From Eubacterium sp. (GTDB lineage: Bacteria > Bacillota > Clostridia > Lachnospirales > Lachnospiraceae): DNA of 13,702 nucleotides. Below the pieces are notes generated by a model that had not been told where the DNA came from, did no database searches, and saw only the letters and a program-made list of their open reading frames with translations. The stretch spans positions 1 to 13,702 of the forward strand of contig JAJGAH010000013.1 of NCBI GenBank assembly GCA_020844525.1, given 5' to 3'. Every line of letters starts with the position of its first letter. Position 1 is the stretch's first letter. A program made the position numbers and the translations under genes. This document shows positions 2,949 to 13,702 of the stretch, piece after piece.

Positions 2949-4061
2949 TCAAATACTGCAATCCAAATGTCTGTCTGCTGCATGCATTTTTCTTTTGTTT
3001 TCATACATCATCTGGTCCGCTCTGTGCACGGTCTCCTCGCCATCCTCTCCGGGACGCTGTCCGGCCATACCAAAAGCAAAATCCAGAGGGAAGTCTCCAT
3101 ACTCCGGGTCACATTTTTCTCTGTCCTGAAGTTCTGCCAGAACCGGAAGCAGCTGTGCCGGAGTGGTAGTTATGGAGAGCATGCAGAATTCATCTCCACC
3201 AATCCGAAAAAGCTCCCCATATGGAGCCATCACCTTCTGTGCAGTCAGGCCGAAAGCACGCAGATATGCATCTCCATCTGCGTGTCCGCGCTGATCATTC
3301 ACATCCTTTAAATGATTCAGGTCAAACATCACAGCCGTAAGCGGCCTGTTTTCCCTGCGATGATGCCGCAGCATTTTCAGATACACTTCCCGGTTGTGAA
3401 GTTTTGTGACCAAGTCAGTCTTCGCGTACATTTGGTCAATTGCAAGAATCATGAAGAGATAACAGATACTGATACAGCACCAGTTGTCGGTCAGATCTCC
3501 GTAAATAATCTGTGCCAGTACTCCAACACCTACGATTCCCACTGAAAACGCAACCATAATATGATCACTTCTGTCAAACAAGAAGCTGCGAATGTAATAT
3601 CTCCATATCAGAAAAAGAAATATAAGATATTCCACCAGGGAATAGAATATAAAAAATGGTTTAAAGTACATATATCCTTCCCTATGGCTGAATATAACCT
3701 TATACCAGATATTCAAAAAAGGAACAATCTCCAGGAAGGATAATGCGAGGATCCTGATCAGATGGCTCCTCAACGATATGACCCCAGTATACACATAAGG
3801 AATAAACGCCGCCGAAACAGGAATCAGCATATAGATTACACATGTTATTGAATTCAAAACTGTATCTGTTTGTACCGTTGCCGGAAAAGTTTCCAAAACT
3901 ATTTCCCAGATCTGGTCCAGAATCAGAATCAGTGCAAAAAAGATTCCGGAAAGGAAGCAAAAGCGTTTCACTCTGATTTCGATGCTCATGCTGTCATACA
4001 GCCGGAACCAGGCAAACAGTACGAGAATCATGGAGATAATGTCAATAAATAAAACTGTCAT
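2949..4061 (-). CDS. Membrane-bound GGDEF diguanylate cyclase
   Basis: The 370-residue protein has an N-terminal membrane region (about residues 1-210, roughly six to seven hydrophobic segments) and a C-terminal GGDEF domain (about 213-360). The domain keeps the signature GGDEF at 288-292, metal-binding D247 and E291, and the substrate-binding stretch with N255 and D264. It should therefore be able to make c-di-GMP from two GTP at the cytoplasmic face. No RxxD inhibitory site is present: the expected positions hold A279 and G282. The membrane part is not a sensor family I can name. ATG 4061 has a GAGG site (4071-4068) six bases upstream that overlaps the stop codon of the Nudix gene. Only eight bases separate the two genes, so translation is probably coupled. 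This is the third gene of the riboswitch-led operon. Confidence 0.92.
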   Translation of the reverse strand: MTVLFIDIISMILVLFAWFRLYDSMSIEIRVKRFCFLSGIFFALILILDQIWEIVLETFPATVQTDTVLNSITCVIYMLIPVSAAFIPYVYTGVISLRSHLIRILALSFLEIVPFLNIWYKVIFSHREGYMYFKPFFIFYSLVEYLIFLFLIWRYYIRSFLFDRSDHIMVAFSVGIVGVGVLAQIIYGDLTDNWCCISICYLFMILAIDQMYAKTDLVTKLHNREVYLKMLRHHRRENRPLTAVMFDLNHLKDVNDQRGHADGDAYLRAFGLTAQKVMAPYGELFRIGGDEFCMLSITTTPAQLLPVLAELQDREKCDPEYGDFPLDFAFGMAGQRPGEDGEETVHRADQMMYENKRKMHAADRHLDCSI

Positions 4062-4069
4062 TTAAGTCC

Positions 4070-4639
4070 TCATTTATCCGTGCGAAAAATCATATATGCA
4101 AGAATTCCCGCCACCGTTTTGGCGTCCTGTATCTCCCCCCGGAAAATCATTTCATGCAGCCTGGTAAGAGACAAGGCCTCCAGCCTGATCTCCTCCGCTT
4201 CATCGAGCTGCTGTTCTCCCTTACGCACCAGATTCTGCGCGAGATAGACATCCGTATATTCATTGCAATAGGCTGCCGCTGTTTTCAAAGTCAGCAGGTG
4301 CGTCCAGTGCTTCGCGATATATCCTGTTTCCTCCTGCAGCTCTCTTTTTGCGGTCTGCTCTGCAGATACATCACCCGGATCAATTGCACCTGCCGGAAGC
4401 TCAAGTGTTTCGCGATCAATCACCGGTCTGTACTGGCGGACCATCAGGATGCGCTCGTCAGGAAGAACAGGAACGATGCACGCACCGCCGCCCTTCTTAT
4501 GAGAAACGAAATCCCACTCCTCGATTTTGCCATCCGGCAGCTGCATTCTGTCCTTGTATACATCCAGAACAGAGCCGGAATAGACAAGTCTTCTGTTCAG
4601 TCGTTGCAGCTTATATAAGTTCTGGTCGTCTATCCCCAT
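4070..4639 (-). CDS. Nudix hydrolase, ADP-ribose pyrophosphatase-like
   Basis: The 189-residue protein matches the NudF/YqkG type ADP-ribose pyrophosphatase layout. It has an N-terminal strand region, then ILMVRQYRP (64-72), the Nudix box at 84-107 and a conserved tail. The box reads G84...REL(99-101)-x-EE(103-104)-x-G106, with metal-binding E100, E103 and E104 intact. There is one residue more than the standard spacing between G84 and R99, and D90 stands where Glu is usual. Known relatives cleave ADP-ribose to AMP and ribose-5-phosphate; another nucleotide substrate is possible. ATG 4639 follows an AAGGA site (4650-4646) at six bases. It lies 62 bases after the unknown gene and 8 bases before the GGDEF gene on the same strand. 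Its presence with a cyclase may be chance operon packing. Confidence 0.88.
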   Translation of the reverse strand: MGIDDQNLYKLQRLNRRLVYSGSVLDVYKDRMQLPDGKIEEWDFVSHKKGGGACIVPVLPDERILMVRQYRPVIDRETLELPAGAIDPGDVSAEQTAKRELQEETGYIAKHWTHLLTLKTAAAYCNEYTDVYLAQNLVRKGEQQLDEAEEIRLEALSLTRLHEMIFRGEIQDAKTVAGILAYMIFRTDK

Positions 4640-4701
4640 TTGTTTTCCTTCATTCTCAGCAGTTAAAAATGATCATATCTCCAGTATATACTACCGATGA
4701 A

Positions 4702-5220
4702 TCAGCGGAACTCTCCTGGTTTTATACGGATTTCCCGATTCCTCTTCACATTCCAGAATCTGCAGTCTATGACTCCGCCTTTATTTTTCAGCATCTGAAT
4801 GAACGGATCACAATCCGCACTATGCAGAAAATCAATGGTCTGGTGAAACAGACGAACCCTGCTCACATCATTATCATTTATTGTCAGAGAACAGACCCAT
4901 TCTTTGCCGGAATAAACTGCCGCCATATACATTCTCCCAGAGAGAAAATTCACAATGTCCTGCCGCATATGCTCAAAATCCCGGTCTGTCGCCTCATAAT
5001 GAGCATTCCAGTCTCCATAAGTAAGTGTGAAGCTGTCCTCCAGGTCAATATACAGATCATCCTCGCCCGAAGGATTTAGTACTGCCACACAAAAGTTACC
5101 GTTTTTGAGATACTCGTATCCTTCGTCTTCCTTCGTATAAGTAGCAATCTTCTGTCCATCCAGAATATCGATTACTTCGCCAAGCATCGCTGCAGGCCTG
5201 GTCTTTACCGGTTTTGCCAT
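4702..5220 (-). CDS. Unknown 172-residue protein under c-di-GMP riboswitch
   Basis: I do not recognise a named family. The protein is soluble, acidic in the middle, and has no signal peptide or membrane segment. Visible stretches are an N-terminal basic segment (MAKPVKTRP), an acidic block 'GEDDLYIDLEDSFTLTYGDW' (52-71), an aromatic W71-x2-H-Y motif, and a basic C-terminus (KRNREIRIKPGEFR). The frame is open upstream to 5286, but that part overlaps the terminator and palindrome. ATG 5220 is preceded by AGGTGG at short spacing and by AAAGG at 12 bases. The gene is the first one after the riboswitch and is co-directional with the Nudix and GGDEF genes. Its job is unknown; response to c-di-GMP is inferred only from position. 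Confidence 0.75.
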   Translation of the reverse strand: MAKPVKTRPAAMLGEVIDILDGQKIATYTKEDEGYEYLKNGNFCVAVLNPSGEDDLYIDLEDSFTLTYGDWNAHYEATDRDFEHMRQDIVNFLSGRMYMAAVYSGKEWVCSLTINDNDVSRVRLFHQTIDFLHSADCDPFIQMLKNKGGVIDCRFWNVKRNREIRIKPGEFR

Positions 5221-5238
5221 TCTCCACCTGTACCTTTC

Positions 5239-5254
5239 TGTTCTGATCAGAACA
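5239..5254. promoter_or_regulatory. 16-base perfect palindrome in the leader
   Basis: TGTTCTGATCAGAACA is a perfect 16-base palindrome between the terminator-like hairpin and the ribosome binding site of the unknown gene. It could be a repressor operator for a dimeric protein or a small RNA hairpin near the start codon. No named regulator is recognised. Confidence 0.45.
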
Positions 5255-5257
5255 AAC

Positions 5258-5290
5258 AAAAAAAAGCCCCTCTGCATGACATGCAAAAGG
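5258..5290 (-). terminator. Intrinsic terminator downstream of riboswitch
   Basis: Read on the minus strand, CCTTT-TGCAT-GTC-ATGCA-GAGGG forms a stem of about ten pairs (with G-U pairs), followed by C and eight T (5265-5258). It sits between the c-di-GMP aptamer and the first gene, the expected place for a riboswitch expression platform. Confidence 0.7.
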
Positions 5291-5297
5291 AACCTGC

Positions 5298-5321
5298 AAA
5301 AAAGATACCACTACCTGTATC
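5298..5321 (-). terminator. Weak hairpin plus T6 at the aptamer 3' side
   Basis: On the minus strand GATAC (5321-5317) and GTATC (5308-5304) can pair around an 8-base loop, directly followed by six T. The stem is short and AT-rich, so this is either a weak terminator or part of a switching structure. The GTATC arm overlaps a TGGTA that could pair instead with TACCA (5405-5401) at the 5' side of the aptamer. Confidence 0.4.
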
Positions 5322-5400
5322 GTAAGCGCAGCTGGCTGCCAGATCAAAGGCCCTTTAGCTTTGCGTCGCCGGTTTTCACCGGGTTTGCTGAATAAATTAT
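5322..5400 (-). promoter_or_regulatory. Cyclic-di-GMP class I (GEMM-I) riboswitch
   Basis: On the minus strand the conserved GEMM-I blocks occur in order. AGCAAACC leads into a perfect CCGGT-GAAA-ACCGG hairpin with a GNRA tetraloop, then GACGCAAAGCT closes P2 (AGC/GCT). GGGCC follows, then the P3-side block GGCAGCCAGCTGC (5339-5327), like the GCCAGCTGCC found in many clostridial members. The variable hairpin between GGGCC and GGCAGCC is very short. Known GEMM-I RNAs bind c-di-GMP at the three-way junction. Here the RNA precedes the unknown, Nudix and GGDEF genes and is followed by terminator-like hairpins, so transcriptional control is likely. I see no strong promoter between the tuf terminator and the aptamer. 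P1 is not obvious by eye. Confidence 0.88.
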
Positions 5401-5411
5401 TGGTAAACGAA

Positions 5412-5458
5412 GCCCGGAAAGGCTATAAGCTTTTCCGGGCCGAACGGTAATAAACCGT
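5412..5458 (-). terminator. Terminator of the str operon after tuf
   Basis: On the minus strand GCCCGGAAA (5440-5432) pairs with TTTCCGGGC (5420-5412), with inner GC pairs, and is followed by a T-rich run TTCGTTT. A smaller hairpin ACGGT-TTATT-ACCGT (5458-5444) precedes it. The position, 19 to 65 bases after the tuf stop, fits the end of the str operon. The T-run is interrupted, so some read-through into the riboswitch leader is possible. Confidence 0.7.
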
Positions 5459-5476: not shown

Positions 5477-6670
5477 TTACTCAAGGATGGAAGCTACACG
5501 TCCAGATCCTACAGTATGGCCGCCCTCACGAATAGCGAAGGTAAGTCCCTGCTCCATAGCGATCGGGTGAATCAGCTCGATGGTCATCTCAACGTTATCA
5601 CCAGGCATGCACATCTCAGTTCCTTCCGGAAGAGTGATAACACCGGTAACGTCTGTTGTTCTGAAATAGAACTGCGGACGATAGTTGTTGAAGAAAGGTG
5701 TATGACGGCCACCCTCATCCTTTGTCAGAACGTATACCTGAGCAGTGAACTTTGTGTGGCAGGTAACTGTGCCAGGCTTTGCAACAACCTGTCCCTTCTC
5801 GATGTCTGTTCTATTGATACCACGGAGAAGAACACCGATGTTATCACCAGCCATAGCCTCATCCAGAAGCTTATGGAACATCTCAATACCTGTAGCAACA
5901 GAACTGAGCTTGGACTCGGAAATTCCAAGGATCTCAACCGGGTCATTCAGTCTCAGAGTACCACGCTCTACACGGCCGGTAGCAACAGTTCCACGTCCGG
6001 AGATTGTGAATACATCCTCAACAGGCATAAGGAACGGCTTATCAGTATCACGAACAGGAGTCGGGATATGCTCATCAACGGTAGCAAGAAGCTCCATGAT
6101 CTTGTCGCCCCAAGGACCATTCGGATCCTCAAGAGCCTTCAGAGCGGAACCACGAACGATAGGAGTATCTTCGAATCCATACTCGTCAAGAAGCTCGGTA
6201 ACCTCCATCTCAACCAGCTCAATCAGCTCATCATCATCAACCATATCACACTTGTTAAGGAATACAACCATGGCCGGAACACCAACCTGACGAGCAAGCA
6301 GAACGTGCTCACGAGTCTGTGCCATAACACCATCAGTAGCAGCAACTACAAGGATAGCGCCATCCATCTGAGCTGCACCTGTGATCATGTTCTTTACATA
6401 GTCAGCATGTCCTGGGCAGTCAACATGTGCATAGTGACGGTTCTCTGTCTCATACTCTACATGAGCGGTATTGATTGTGATACCACGCTCTCTCTCTTCG
6501 GGAGCTTTATCAATGTTGGAGAAGTCAACAATCTGGTTCTCATCGGTAGGCATTCTGGTAGCCAGAACCTTGGTGATTGCAGCTGTCAGAGTGGTTTTAC
6601 CATGGTCTACATGTCCGATGGTACCAATGTTGCAATGCGGTTTTGTTCTTTCAAATTTCTGTTTTGCCAT
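5477..6670 (-). CDS. tuf: Translation elongation factor EF-Tu
   Basis: The 397-residue protein is a full-length EF-Tu, which delivers aminoacyl-tRNA to the ribosome as a GTP complex. The GTPase motifs are intact: GHVDHGKT (19-26), RGITI (62-66), DCPGH (84-88, with catalytic H88) and NKCD (139-142). Domains 2 and 3 follow with the family-typical '[12 protein letters not shown]' stretch. ATG 6670 follows an AAGGAGG site (6687-6681) at ten bases. It is the last gene of the str operon, 136 bases after fusA, and that gap holds a promoter of its own. Q128 in LLARQVGVP is the residue equivalent to E. coli Q124, which is linked to kirromycin action; it is wild type. Confidence 0.98.
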
Positions 6671-10532: not shown

Positions 10533-11627
10533 ATGATAAAAATAAAGGCTGTTAAACCCTCACAACTGAAAACTGGCATGGTCATTGCCGATGAGATTCT
10601 GGATCAGCATGGCCGGGAACTGGTCAGAAACGGCACGTATGTTGATGATTTTATTATCGAACGTCTGAATAGTCTGAACGTCAACACTGTCATGATCCAA
10701 TACGGACGCCCCGACGATAACCCCGAAGATATATCCCCCGAGGCCATCCGGAATATTCAGCGCTTCCGCAGACCAGATAAGACAAAAATGGTCATCAGCA
10801 GTATCATAAAAGAGCGGGTTGAACATAATGTCAAAAATATGTTCATCAACGCCAACCAGCCTGATGTTGCCGTAAAAATGGCCAAGACCGTTGTTTCCGA
10901 TCTGATGGATTCCATTCGCAAGAATAATGCCATCATGCTGAGCATTGACGATCTCAGGATCTCTGACGAGTACACCTTCAAACACAGCGTAGATGTTGCC
11001 GCGCTTTCCATGATCATTGCCCGGAAAGAGAAATTGTCAGAAGACCAGATTCAGAAAATCGGTCTGGCCGGACTTCTGCACGACCTGGGAAAGACAAAAA
11101 TTCCCAATGAAATTCTGAACAAACCGGGACGACTGACACCAGAAGAATTTGAGATCATGAAAAAGCACAGCCAGTACAGCTACGAGCTTGTCAGGAACAA
11201 TCCGGAGGTATCCCCGGATATTGCCATTGGTATTCTGCAGCATCACGAGAAAATGAATGGCTGCGGATATCCTTTCGGTCTGACGGAAGAACACATTCAT
11301 CCATATGCAAAGATTCTGTCTGTCGCTGATATTTTTGATGCTCTGGCCACGGACCGGCCCTATAAGAAGGCAATGAATCTCAAAGACGCGACGGACCTTC
11401 TGATGACCATGACGGCCGAATTGGATTCCTTTGCGCTTCGCAGTTTCCTCAGGACGATTCTTCTCTATCCTGTTGATTCGATTGTACAGCTCAGCAATGG
11501 TGAATCCGCCCGTGTTGTCAGCAACCACCCGGATCTTCCGCTTCGTCCTACGGTAGTATCCTTGAAAACTGGTGCGGTTTATAATCTGGCATCGACAAAA
11601 TATCTGAACCTTGTCATCGAATCCTGA
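10533..11627 (+). CDS. HD-GYP domain c-di-GMP phosphodiesterase
   Basis: The 364-residue protein has an N-terminal region (about 1-135) of the type often found before HD-GYP domains, an HD-GYP domain (about 140-300), and a short C-terminal beta-rich tail (about 312-364). Metal-binding and signature residues are present: H151, H183-D184 with K187, H212, H237-H238, G245-Y246-P247 and D266. The HHE-x-x-D-G-x-GYP signature has Asn (N242) at the usual Asp. Known members hydrolyse c-di-GMP to pGpG or GMP in the cytosol. No membrane segment or signal peptide is seen. ATG 10533 gives the usual family N-terminus; the ribosome binding site (GGAAGA, 10515-10520) is weak and 12 bases away. It is divergent from rpsL and has a tandem promoter. 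Confidence 0.92.
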   Translation: MIKIKAVKPSQLKTGMVIADEILDQHGRELVRNGTYVDDFIIERLNSLNVNTVMIQYGRPDDNPEDISPEAIRNIQRFRRPDKTKMVISSIIKERVEHNVKNMFINANQPDVAVKMAKTVVSDLMDSIRKNNAIMLSIDDLRISDEYTFKHSVDVAALSMIIARKEKLSEDQIQKIGLAGLLHDLGKTKIPNEILNKPGRLTPEEFEIMKKHSQYSYELVRNNPEVSPDIAIGILQHHEKMNGCGYPFGLTEEHIHPYAKILSVADIFDALATDRPYKKAMNLKDATDLLMTMTAELDSFALRSFLRTILLYPVDSIVQLSNGESARVVSNHPDLPLRPTVVSLKTGAVYNLASTKYLNLVIES

Positions 11628-11753: not shown

Positions 11754-13702
11754 TTAATACTTGTCATCCGGATCCGGTCTGAAACTTTCACCTTCTGATT
11801 CCTTTACCGGGGGGAGATCTGCATTATGAACGTTGTGTCCAATATTTCCCTCTCCCACGCCTTTATTCTCCTGCTGTGTATTCTCTGACGTTGATTTTAC
11901 TATGTTGCTCTTATGATCCTTATTTTCTGCTATGCTGTCTTTCTGGTCCTTCTTTTCTTCTGCATCCGCCACTCTCTCATACTTTAATCCGGCAGGTTGC
12001 ATTGTCCTGGCCGCATCCGAATGATCATATCCGTTTTCTTTTTTCTCCGATGCAGCATGAGCAGATCTTCCCTGCTTTTTTTCTGATTCCGTAAGACCGG
12101 ATCTGTCAGCCATTTTCTTAGATGCGGGATGGTTCTTTGATGCGGCACCACTCTCTGATTCCGTATGCTTTTCTGCTCCCGCTCTGTCCGCTCCGGTTTC
12201 TCTGAGCTTAAACTTCATGATCAGCTTCTTCATAAGTGAGGCCTGTGAAGAGAGCTCTTCGGATGCCGCAGCGCTTTGCTCGGCTGTTGCGGAATTGGTC
12301 TGCACGACGTTGGAAATCTGCTCCAGTCCCTTGGTCACCTGGGATACGCCCTTGCTCTGCGCATCAGATGCAGTGCTGATTTCACCAATCAGGGCTGTAA
12401 TCTTTTCCGTGTTGTCTGATACCGATCCAAGGGATTTTGCGGTTTCTCTTGTGAGGGCTCCGCCCTTCTGCACGGCGTTTACCGTATCCTGAATCAGTGT
12501 TGCGGTTGACTTTGCAGCCTGCGCGGATTTATTGGCCAGATTGCCAACCTCGTCTGCAACAACAGCGAATCCTTTGCCCGCTTCTCCGGCACGTGCAGCC
12601 TCGATGGAAGCATTTAATGCAAGAATATTTGTCTGGAAAGCAATATCATCGATGGTCTTGATGATCTTGCTGATCTCCTCAGCCTTTTTCGTAATGTCAT
12701 CCATGGCATCGGACATTTCGTGCATTTTCTCATTGGAGTTTGTAACCGCCTTGCCGGCTTCCTCGGAAAGCCTCGATGCATCCTGCGCCCGTTCTGCAGT
12801 GTCATGGATTTTCTGGGTAATATCTGCCATAGCCGCAGAGAGCTCCTCTACAGATGAAGCCTGCTCTGTAGATCCCTGGGCAAGTGCCTGTGCGCCGGAA
12901 GCAACCTGACCGGCTCCGCTGTCGACCTGATCCGCCGATTCCCGGATCCTGGCCATGCTCATATTCAGCTGGTCTGTAATGACGGCGAGAGAATCCAGAA
13001 GCGGTCTGTATTCCCCGATATATACATCCTGCTCATCATTTTCAAAATCAAAATCACCTTCAGCCATGCTGCTGAGCTTCTGACGGAGATTCTCAATAAT
13101 TCCCTGCAGGGTCTCTACCATCGTGCGCATGCTGTCGGCCAGTCTGCCGATCTCATCATGGTAATCGTATTGCAGAGAAACCTCGAAGGACCCCTTAGCC
13201 ATGGTTTCCGCCACGCCGGCCACCTGCTTTAACGGCTTCAGGGACTTCTTGATCGTGCGGCTGATCAGAATGAAAAGTGCCGCCAGAAACAGCAGCAGTG
13301 CAACCGACATGATCATGACCAGCTTGCGGATGCCTCCCACATACTCACTGAAATCAATAGAGGTCTGCACCCACCAGGTCTTATTGCCAACCGATACCGG
13401 ACTGAAAGCACGTACCTTGTGATATTGGCCATTCTTTACATCGGCAATAAAGGATTTGCCCGAGCTCATGCTATTTTTAACACTTGAAGCAGAAGCACCA
13501 AGGTACTTTGTCACATCCACACCGATGGAATCCTTATTGCTGCTATAGGCAATGTTTCCACTATCATTAATAACATCGACTAATAGCGACTGATAATTCT
13601 CCTTTTCCTGACCGCTGACATCGAAGGCTTCTACAGAAAGGTCCACAAAAGCAACCCCGATCACCTCTTCTTCCTCGGTCTTTTTATTCTTCCATGCGAT
13701 CG
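11754..13702 (-). CDS. Methyl-accepting chemotaxis protein (N-terminus cut by window edge)
   Basis: The frame is open to the window edge, with 648 complete residues visible; the true start and first membrane helix are outside. Counting from the V codon at 13664, residues 1-110 are the end of a Cache-like extracellular sensor ([13 protein letters not shown]). A membrane helix follows (about 114-134), then HAMP (about 136-190) and a second HAMP-like stretch (about 195-240). The MCP signalling hairpin (about 250-485) has its conserved tip at 338-380 ([20 protein letters not shown]). Receptors of this type signal through CheW/CheA to the flagellar motor. The last 147 residues (about 490-636) are an unusually long Lys/Glu/Ser/Ala-rich tail ending in DDKY. 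The gene is convergent with the HD-GYP gene across a shared terminator. The ligand is unknown. Confidence 0.93.

What the first reader, a model, noticed from the sequence alone, without database searches (positions are those of the whole stretch)
2949..5400. c-di-GMP riboswitch heading an operon that ends in a diguanylate cyclase
A GEMM-I aptamer (AGCAAACC, perfect P2 hairpin with GAAA loop, GACGCAAAGC, GGCAGCCAGCTGC) precedes three co-directional genes: unknown, Nudix, GGDEF. The spacings are 62 and 8 bases and the last pair shares a ribosome binding site/stop overlap. If the operon is one transcript, the RNA sensing c-di-GMP controls the enzyme that makes it. That GEMM-I RNAs often control c-di-GMP turnover and motility genes is established; the specific loop here is inference.
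Basis: partly seen in the sequence, partly recalled or inferred. Interest (0 to 1): 0.75.

Follow-up and report, generated by a model that had tools for sequence, protein, structure and literature searches.

The report
Self-limiting signal operon behind EF-Tu gene
In a Lachnospiraceae bacterium, a row of three genes that ends with a likely c-di-GMP-making enzyme begins with an RNA of the c-di-GMP sensor family just behind the EF-Tu gene, and this RNA is predicted to shut the row off when the signal is high, so that the signal would limit its own production.

Summary
Confirmed on the minus strand: a GEMM-I aptamer (RF01051, 49.7 bits, cut-off 35; 5399-5324), a terminator-like hairpin (5291-5267), then an unknown protein, a Nudix hydrolase and a GGDEF protein with intact catalytic motifs (gaps 62 and 8 bases, no promoter-like site between). 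(1) The leader starts 77 bases behind tuf; two congeners keep the aptamer there, a third has the terminator without it. (2) In those two the terminator's 5' arm is complementary to the aptamer core, which predicts an OFF switch and so negative feedback; in the window the pairing is weaker (P=0.16) and rests mainly on the neighbouring P3 strand. (3) The older cargo is unknown gene-FliB-Nudix; GGDEF is clade-specific, and FliB is missing here. [quoted passage not shown] yet all ten GGDEFs found in this incomplete genome look c-di-GMP-type. GEMM-I ahead of GGDEF is uncommon, not new: 4 of 60 sampled family loci, two of them without EAL. Ligand, single transcript and feedback remain untested. A rare variant of a known kind.

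The parts
5324..5399 (-). GEMM-I (c-di-GMP-I) riboswitch aptamer
   Evidence: Rfam RF01051, 49.7 bits, E 2.2e-7, model 1-87 of 87
5389..5389 (-). A at aptamer position 11 (Vc2 position 20), the selectivity base; G in both congeners that keep the aptamer
   Evidence: role of the base from PMC9262584 passage; its equivalence to position 11 is placed from the Rfam structure line and recalled Vc2 numbering
5348..5368 (-). aptamer segment CGACGCAAAGCUAAAGGGCCU (core plus 5' strand of P3), predicted antiterminator strand
   Evidence: duplex with terminator 5' arm -12.8 to -13.0 kcal/mol; same segment in G201 and G211; in the window most pairs come from CUAAAGGGCC
5258..5291 (-). intrinsic terminator (hairpin 5291-5267 and U-tract), expression platform
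   Evidence: 11 pairs; fold; counterparts in G201 and G211 and, without aptamer, in G203
4702..5220 (-). first gene, 172 aa, no known family
   Evidence: ORF; no Pfam/NCBIfam match; 12 of 16 genus genomes and 4 of 200 family genomes, own included in both
4070..4639 (-). Nudix hydrolase, 189 aa, substrate not assigned
   Evidence: PF00293 60.1 bits; best NCBIfam model NudE, below its cut-off
2949..4061 (-). GGDEF protein with membrane-like N-terminal half (by eye), predicted diguanylate cyclase, 370 aa
   Evidence: PF00990 80.3 bits; catalytic motifs intact; no I-site RxxD (by eye, rule recalled)
5412..5440 (-). hairpin behind tuf with a broken U-tract (TTCGTTT)
5396..5401 (-). -10-like AATAAT ahead of the aptamer (TATAAT in G211, CACAAT in G201), no -35 found
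   Evidence: read by eye; scans found no promoter-like site
5477..6670 (-). tuf (EF-Tu), the gene directly upstream
   Evidence: ORF; gene name recognised from the sequence, no family search run; 98% identical orthologues upstream of the same aptamer in G201 and G211

Best explanation
The window holds a GEMM-I aptamer, a terminator-like hairpin and an unknown gene-Nudix-GGDEF row just behind tuf, which together are predicted to work as a transcriptional OFF switch: when c-di-GMP is high the aptamer would hold its core and P3 strands, the terminator would form and the likely diguanylate cyclase at the end of the row would no longer be made. When c-di-GMP is low, the same stretch (GACGCAAAG..AGGGCC) would pair with the terminator's 5' arm as an antiterminator and RNA polymerase would read through. 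Shown: aptamer, terminator, gene order, spacing, catalytic motifs, conservation of place. Inferred: ligand, OFF direction, one transcript, cyclase activity, the feedback. The cyclase lacks the RxxD inhibition site, so this switch could stand in for missing product inhibition (inference). Transcription would enter from a -10-like site at the aptamer's start or by read-through from tuf; this is unresolved.
For: RF01051 match with a terminator-like hairpin 32 bases further on. Place kept: G201 carries the aptamer between tuf and the orthologous first gene, G211 between tuf and a contig end (59.1 and 61 bits). With the terminator's 3' arm withheld from pairing, all three leaders fold with the terminator's 5' arm on the aptamer: on core plus P3 strand in G201 and G211, on the P3 5' strand in the window, which also breaks P3. 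Aptamer segment against arm: G201 -18.9 kcal/mol (P=0.019, 2000 shuffles), G211 -16.2 (P=0.011), window -12.8 (P=0.16). The aptamer-terminator spacers are 32, 59 and 87 bases (with 11), yet the same segment is used. The seven functional C. difficile class I switches are OFF (PMC6366702, part 1 of 3 read). Cyclase motifs intact. No promoter-like site on the minus strand between 5477 and 4061. Only 46 bases separate terminator and first gene in the window, too few for the TGNTATGAT-like site seen by eye in the three congeners.
Against: The antiterminator is not above chance in the window itself (P=0.16; 0.08). The full-length minimum-energy folds have the terminator formed without ligand, and in G211 the chain grown to the 5' arm keeps the aptamer, so read-through would depend on folding order. 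A at position 20. G203 has the genes without the aptamer, and its terminator arm's match to the congeners' or window's aptamer is not significant (P 0.08-0.14). No orthologous GGDEF lies behind Nudix in the other genus members fetched. Weak terminator-like sites lie inside the first gene (4853-4838) and in Nudix (4489-4472, 4186-4174). No transcript or binding data.
Confidence: 0.5

Rival explanations
1. The switch serves the unknown gene (and, in relatives, FliB), a surface or motility function; the GGDEF gene is a passenger whose level matters little, so there is no working feedback loop.
For: Unknown gene-FliB-Nudix is the wider-spread row: a FliB-like gene lies between the two on one contig in 6 genus genomes and, across a contig break, in G201; 3 of 3 FliB proteins scanned match NF038110 at 185-204 bits, cut-off 85. 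An orthologous GGDEF at the locus is seen only in the window, G201, G203 and G211. Congeners G212 and G209 carry GEMM-I ahead of flagellar genes. [quoted passage not shown]
Against: The window lacks FliB and has GGDEF 8 bases behind Nudix with a stop/ribosome-binding-site overlap. G201, G203 and G211 have FliB but no flagellin match, so a flagellar role is itself doubtful.
Confidence: 0.22
2. The riboswitch is decaying: the A20 change, remodelled flanks and weaker antiterminator mark a lineage in which the aptamer no longer switches, and the terminator merely damps read-through.
For: Window 49.7 bits against 59.1 and 61 in the congeners; P=0.16 for the antiterminator; G203 has a terminator of this type without an aptamer.
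Against: The core GACGCAAAGC and GAAA loop are intact; 7 of 60 family loci also have A20, so A20 alone is not decay.
Confidence: 0.15
3. The aptamer is a cGAMP (3',3'-cGAMP) or dual-ligand sensor, so the loop is cross-talk between two cyclic dinucleotides rather than self-limitation.
For: A at the base equivalent to Vc2 G20; passages describe this base as a selectivity factor, and the G20A class I RNA as binding cGAMP (PMC9262584, PMC6274999).
Against: 10 of 10 GGDEF domains found in this genome carry the canonical Asp, not the Ser/Thr of Hypr enzymes (signature from a PMC6456294 passage); both congeners have G20; cGAMP riboswitches can also bind c-di-GMP (PMC9262584 passage). The genome is 69% complete and other cGAMP synthases were not sought.
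Confidence: 0.1
4. An ON switch: c-di-GMP binding promotes read-through and the loop amplifies the signal.
For: Class I ON switches exist (Bc2 in Bacillus thuringiensis, PMC6366702).
Against: Aptamer and terminator do not overlap in the window (32 bases apart), so a bound aptamer cannot break the terminator directly; the predicted antiterminator uses strands that the bound aptamer needs.
Confidence: 0.06

Closest known systems
Cd1 class I c-di-GMP riboswitch of Clostridioides difficile (flgB operon)
   Same: GEMM-I aptamer, intrinsic terminator, OFF logic with an antiterminator that costs ligand-binding ability (PMC9262584 passages); OFF is only predicted here
   Different: Here the antiterminator is predicted to use the core and P3 5' strand, not the downstream aptamer strand named A in those passages; cargo is unknown-Nudix-GGDEF, and it lies behind tuf
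GEMM-I leaders ahead of GGDEF genes in other Lachnospiraceae (L194 in G026, L199 in G046)
   Same: GEMM-I with a terminator, and a GGDEF gene without EAL as first (L194) or first co-directional (L199) ORF
   Different: GGDEF comes first, without the unknown and Nudix genes in front; terminator arm classed as pairing with the 3' aptamer strand
GEMM-Ib / cGAMP riboswitches of Geobacter
   Same: A at position 20 (the Geobacter consensus is recalled)
   Different: No Hypr-type GGDEF among the 10 found in this genome; Bacillota host
C. difficile CD630_07570, a GGDEF-EAL gene lowered when c-di-GMP is high
   Same: A turnover gene answering to c-di-GMP (PMC6200980 passage)
   Different: A phosphodiesterase, so the sign of feedback is opposite; no riboswitch is named in the passage seen

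Membership tests
RF01051 c-di-GMP-I (GEMM-I) riboswitch | covariance-model score above gathering threshold | tested here: met
   49.7 against 35 bits
RF01051 c-di-GMP-I (GEMM-I) riboswitch | P2 stem with GNRA loop and core GACGCAAAG | tested here: met
   GAAA loop, 5 of 6 P2 model pairs standard, core exact
c-di-GMP-selective subgroup (G20 type) | G at the base equivalent to Vc2 G20 | tested here: not met
   A at 5389; a selectivity factor, not a hard filter, in the passage seen (PMC9262584), so the RNA is filed as RF01051 but not as proven c-di-GMP-selective
GEMM-Ib cGAMP riboswitch | A at position 20 | tested here: met
   also 7 of 60 family loci
GEMM-Ib cGAMP riboswitch | a cGAMP-making Hypr GGDEF in the genome | tested here: inconclusive
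   0 of 10 GGDEFs found have Ser/Thr at the signature position, genome 69% complete
transcriptional OFF riboswitch | intrinsic terminator downstream of the aptamer | tested here: met
   5291-5267
transcriptional OFF riboswitch | antiterminator mutually exclusive with the bound aptamer | tested here: inconclusive
   P 0.019 and 0.011 in G201 and G211, 0.16 in the window
transcriptional OFF riboswitch | ligand-dependent termination | not testable with these tools
   needs transcription assay
diguanylate cyclase (GGDEF) | GGDEF domain with substrate and metal residues | tested here: met
   PF00990 80.3 bits; DLNHLKDVNDQRGHADGD and RIGGDEF; aligned to solved GGDEF proteins; roles of single residues recalled
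diguanylate cyclase (GGDEF) | c-di-GMP synthesis | not testable with these tools
   no assay
Nudix hydrolase | Nudix domain | tested here: met
   PF00293 60.1 bits; the NCBIfam models matched are all below their cut-offs

The most novel reading that the evidence does not exclude
A growth-coupled thermostat for c-di-GMP: transcripts that leak through a weakened tuf terminator are the main input to the riboswitch, so the row is supplied in proportion to translation-factor transcription and gated by c-di-GMP, through a terminator whose arm is complementary to the core and P3 strands of the aptamer; the GGDEF enzyme, which lacks an I-site, is held in check by this RNA instead of by its own product site.
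Probability: 0.22. Interest if true: 0.72.

Novelty: new variant of a known kind. Interest (0 to 1): 0.47.

Why it matters
[quoted passage not shown] A cyclase gene under a predicted OFF switch is a compact case in which riboswitch homeostasis of a second messenger could be tested in one leader. The clade also gives a natural series: aptamer with G20 (two congeners), with A20 (window), and absent with the terminator present (G203). If read-through from tuf feeds it, signal supply would be tied to the transcription of a translation operon.

Tried and rejected

Core-complementary terminator as a unique feature: rejected as unique. Of 68 leaders (60 family loci, the window, two congeners at the tuf locus and five further genus loci), 9 lacked the searched core pattern and were dropped, 11 had no terminator by the script; of the other 48, 4 passed P<=0.05 (G201, G211, G209:C4, L196) and the window did not (0.08). 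In the cruder classing, 24 of 68 were dropped and 12 of 44 used the core (window, G201, G211, G209:C4 and 8 family loci).

Relic pairing in G203: its terminator arm against the aptamer segments of G201, G211 and the window gives P 0.082, 0.13 and 0.14, so loss of the aptamer there is plausible, not shown.

Weak tuf terminator: the longest T-run after the hairpin is 2, 2 and 3 in the three aptamer-bearing genomes against a median of 5 in 47 others (5 of 47 have 3 or fewer; 2 of 52 dropped). By the looser count of T in the next 8 bases (5, 4 and 5) the three do not stand out. The three are one clade, so this is one event. Supportive only.

Promoter: no sigma-70-like site at 9 of 12 in the tuf-aptamer gap of the window, G201 or G211; the -10-like hexamers and the TGNTATGAT-like site of the congeners were read by eye. 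In L080 (G211) no promoter- or terminator-like site was found between Nudix and GGDEF.

tuf next to GEMM-I elsewhere: I compared by eye the listed RF01051 places (list truncated by the tool) with the tuf places of 146 of the same 200 family genomes; among these only the window's pair is adjacent, the nearest other on one contig being about 9 kb apart (G054).

Literature: listings were seen; none of the titles or abstract starts shown there describes a riboswitch behind tuf or a GEMM-I-controlled cyclase feedback loop. Only open-licence papers are in that library. Read: part 1 of 3 of PMC6366702. Passages only: PMC6200980, PMC11477304, PMC9262584, PMC6274999, PMC8835794, PMC6456294.

Changed after re-checking: the window's antiterminator fold rests mainly on the P3 5' strand, not on the GACGCAAAG core as in the congeners. 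The OFF logic is the same, so the odds were kept.
Full report
Observation. On the minus strand the window carries one Rfam match at E<=1: RF01051, 5399-5324, 49.7 bits against a gathering score of 35. A terminator-like hairpin of 11 pairs with a run of eight T follows at 5291-5267, then three genes at 5220-4702, 4639-4070 and 4061-2949 with gaps of 62 and 8 bases. The Nudix stop overlaps the GGDEF ribosome-binding site. Pfam gives Nudix (60.1 bits) and GGDEF (80.3 bits) and nothing for the first gene.

Surroundings. The gene upstream is tuf (6670-5477), behind fusA, rpsG and rpsL (these four names are recognised from the sequences, no family search was run on them). The aptamer starts 77 bases after the tuf stop. 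A second GEMM-I of this genome (contig C225, 62.7 bits) precedes a secreted-looking protein with Pro/Gly-rich repeats. The genome's nearest named protein for the first gene, 86% identical, is from Bilifractor, a Lachnospiraceae genus; the assembly is 69% complete.

Relatives. In the genus, 12 of 16 genomes hold the first gene and 12 of 16 a tuf match, own included. In G201 and G211 the aptamer sits in the same place behind tuf (59.1 and 61 bits). In G203 tuf is followed by a canonical terminator (T-run 5) and then by a terminator like the riboswitch's, but no RF01051 match is there. Contig ends fall between aptamer and first gene in G211 and between first gene and FliB in G201; that the contigs are neighbours is inferred. 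So only the window shows aptamer and GGDEF on one contig. In G207, G209, G212, G204 and G205 the first gene is followed by Nudix, with a FliB-like gene between them in all but G207, without tuf in the fetched stretch and without an orthologous GGDEF behind Nudix; in G206, G208 and G210 the first gene was found without these neighbours. The gene between is flagellin lysine-N-methylase FliB (NF038110; 3 of 3 proteins scanned at 185-204 bits, cut-off 85). It is absent from the window's row and gave no match in the rest of its assembly. G201, G203 and G211 hold FliB but gave no flagellin match, while the window's genome has one. So the row probably began as unknown-FliB-Nudix, came to lie behind tuf with a GEMM-I switch, gained GGDEF, and in the window's lineage lost FliB and was compacted. 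This order of events is inference.

Mechanism. With the terminator's 3' arm withheld, all three leaders fold with the terminator's 5' arm on the aptamer: on core plus P3 strand in G201 and G211, on the P3 5' strand in the window. In the duplex calculation the same segment, CGACGCAAAGCTAxAGGGCCT, is used in all three although the spacers to the terminator are 32, 59 and 87 bases. Against 2000 dinucleotide shuffles of the arm the pairing gives P=0.019 (G201), 0.011 (G211) and 0.16 (window). These strands must be in the bound aptamer, so ligand binding would free the terminator arm: an OFF switch. Cd1 of C. difficile works by the same logic with another strand (PMC9262584, passages). The window's own evidence is weak and leans on its congeners. 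The full-length minimum-energy folds have the terminator formed without ligand, and the G211 chain grown to the 5' arm keeps the aptamer, so the ON state would rest on folding order.

Ligand. The base equivalent to Vc2 G20 is A in the window and G in G201 and G211. Among 60 family loci 7 have A (of 82 leaders printed, one, L018, was in the wrong orientation and is dropped; 10 of the other 81 have A). Passages seen describe this base as a selectivity factor between cyclic dinucleotides and cGAMP riboswitches as able to bind c-di-GMP (PMC9262584). All 10 GGDEF domains found in the window's genome carry Asp at the position where cGAMP-making Hypr enzymes carry Ser or Thr (signature from a PMC6456294 passage). 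c-di-GMP is therefore the likelier ligand but not certain.

The enzyme. The GGDEF protein has a membrane-like N-terminal half (by eye), DLNHLKDVNDQRGHADGD and RIGGDEF and aligns to solved GGDEF proteins. The I-site RxxD is absent (APYG; the spacing rule is recalled). Activity is untested.

Input to the leader. No sigma-70-like promoter was found between tuf and aptamer in the three genomes. A -10-like hexamer lies 12 bases before GCAAA in each (AATAAT, CACAAT, TATAAT, by eye). The tuf hairpin has T-runs of 2, 2 and 3 against a median of 5 in 47 other tuf genes, with the limits given under Tried and rejected. Either a weak own promoter or tuf read-through could feed the switch.

How rare. 80 of 200 family genomes, own included, have RF01051. 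I took the first-listed locus of 60 of the 79 others and found a co-directional GGDEF within about 4.5 kb in 4 (a fifth match, in L163, is on the other strand): two GGDEF proteins without EAL (L194, L199) and two PAS-GGDEF-EAL proteins (L171, L166). A few stretches were shorter because contigs end. A GEMM-I cyclase operon is therefore uncommon but exists elsewhere. [quoted passage not shown]

Verdict. A GEMM-I aptamer with a terminator heads the row, and the predicted outcome is negative feedback on c-di-GMP synthesis. It is a rare arrangement of known parts with three unusual details: its place behind tuf, a terminator arm complementary to the aptamer's core region shared with two congeners, and A20.

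Noticed in passing
window 10533-11627 (+) and 11754-13700 (-): An HD_5 (HD-GYP-like) protein, a possible c-di-GMP phosphodiesterase, and a chemoreceptor lie on the other side of the rpsL-rpsG-fusA-tuf cluster.
   Followed up: no
L098 2640-2732 (-), G000 contig C225: Second GEMM-I of this genome, ahead of a secreted-looking protein with Pro/Gly-rich repeats; no terminator was found by the script and no Pfam match for its main ORF.
   Followed up: partly
L035 / L079 (G203), tuf to first gene: No aptamer, but a riboswitch-type terminator, with a normal tuf terminator in front.
   Followed up: partly
G201, G203, G211: FliB-family gene present but no flagellin N-domain match; the enzyme may have another substrate there.
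   Followed up: no
L094 5352-5426 and L095 5708-5782: GEMM-I ahead of fliE, fliF and fliI in G212; the same arrangement in G209 judged by sequence likeness only.
   Followed up: partly
L171 (G127): GEMM-I with A20 directly ahead of a PAS-GGDEF-EAL protein: another c-di-GMP turnover gene behind a selectivity-base variant.
   Followed up: no
L092 4008-4109 (-): THF riboswitch (RF01831, 89.5 bits) just behind a GGDEF gene in G205.
   Followed up: no
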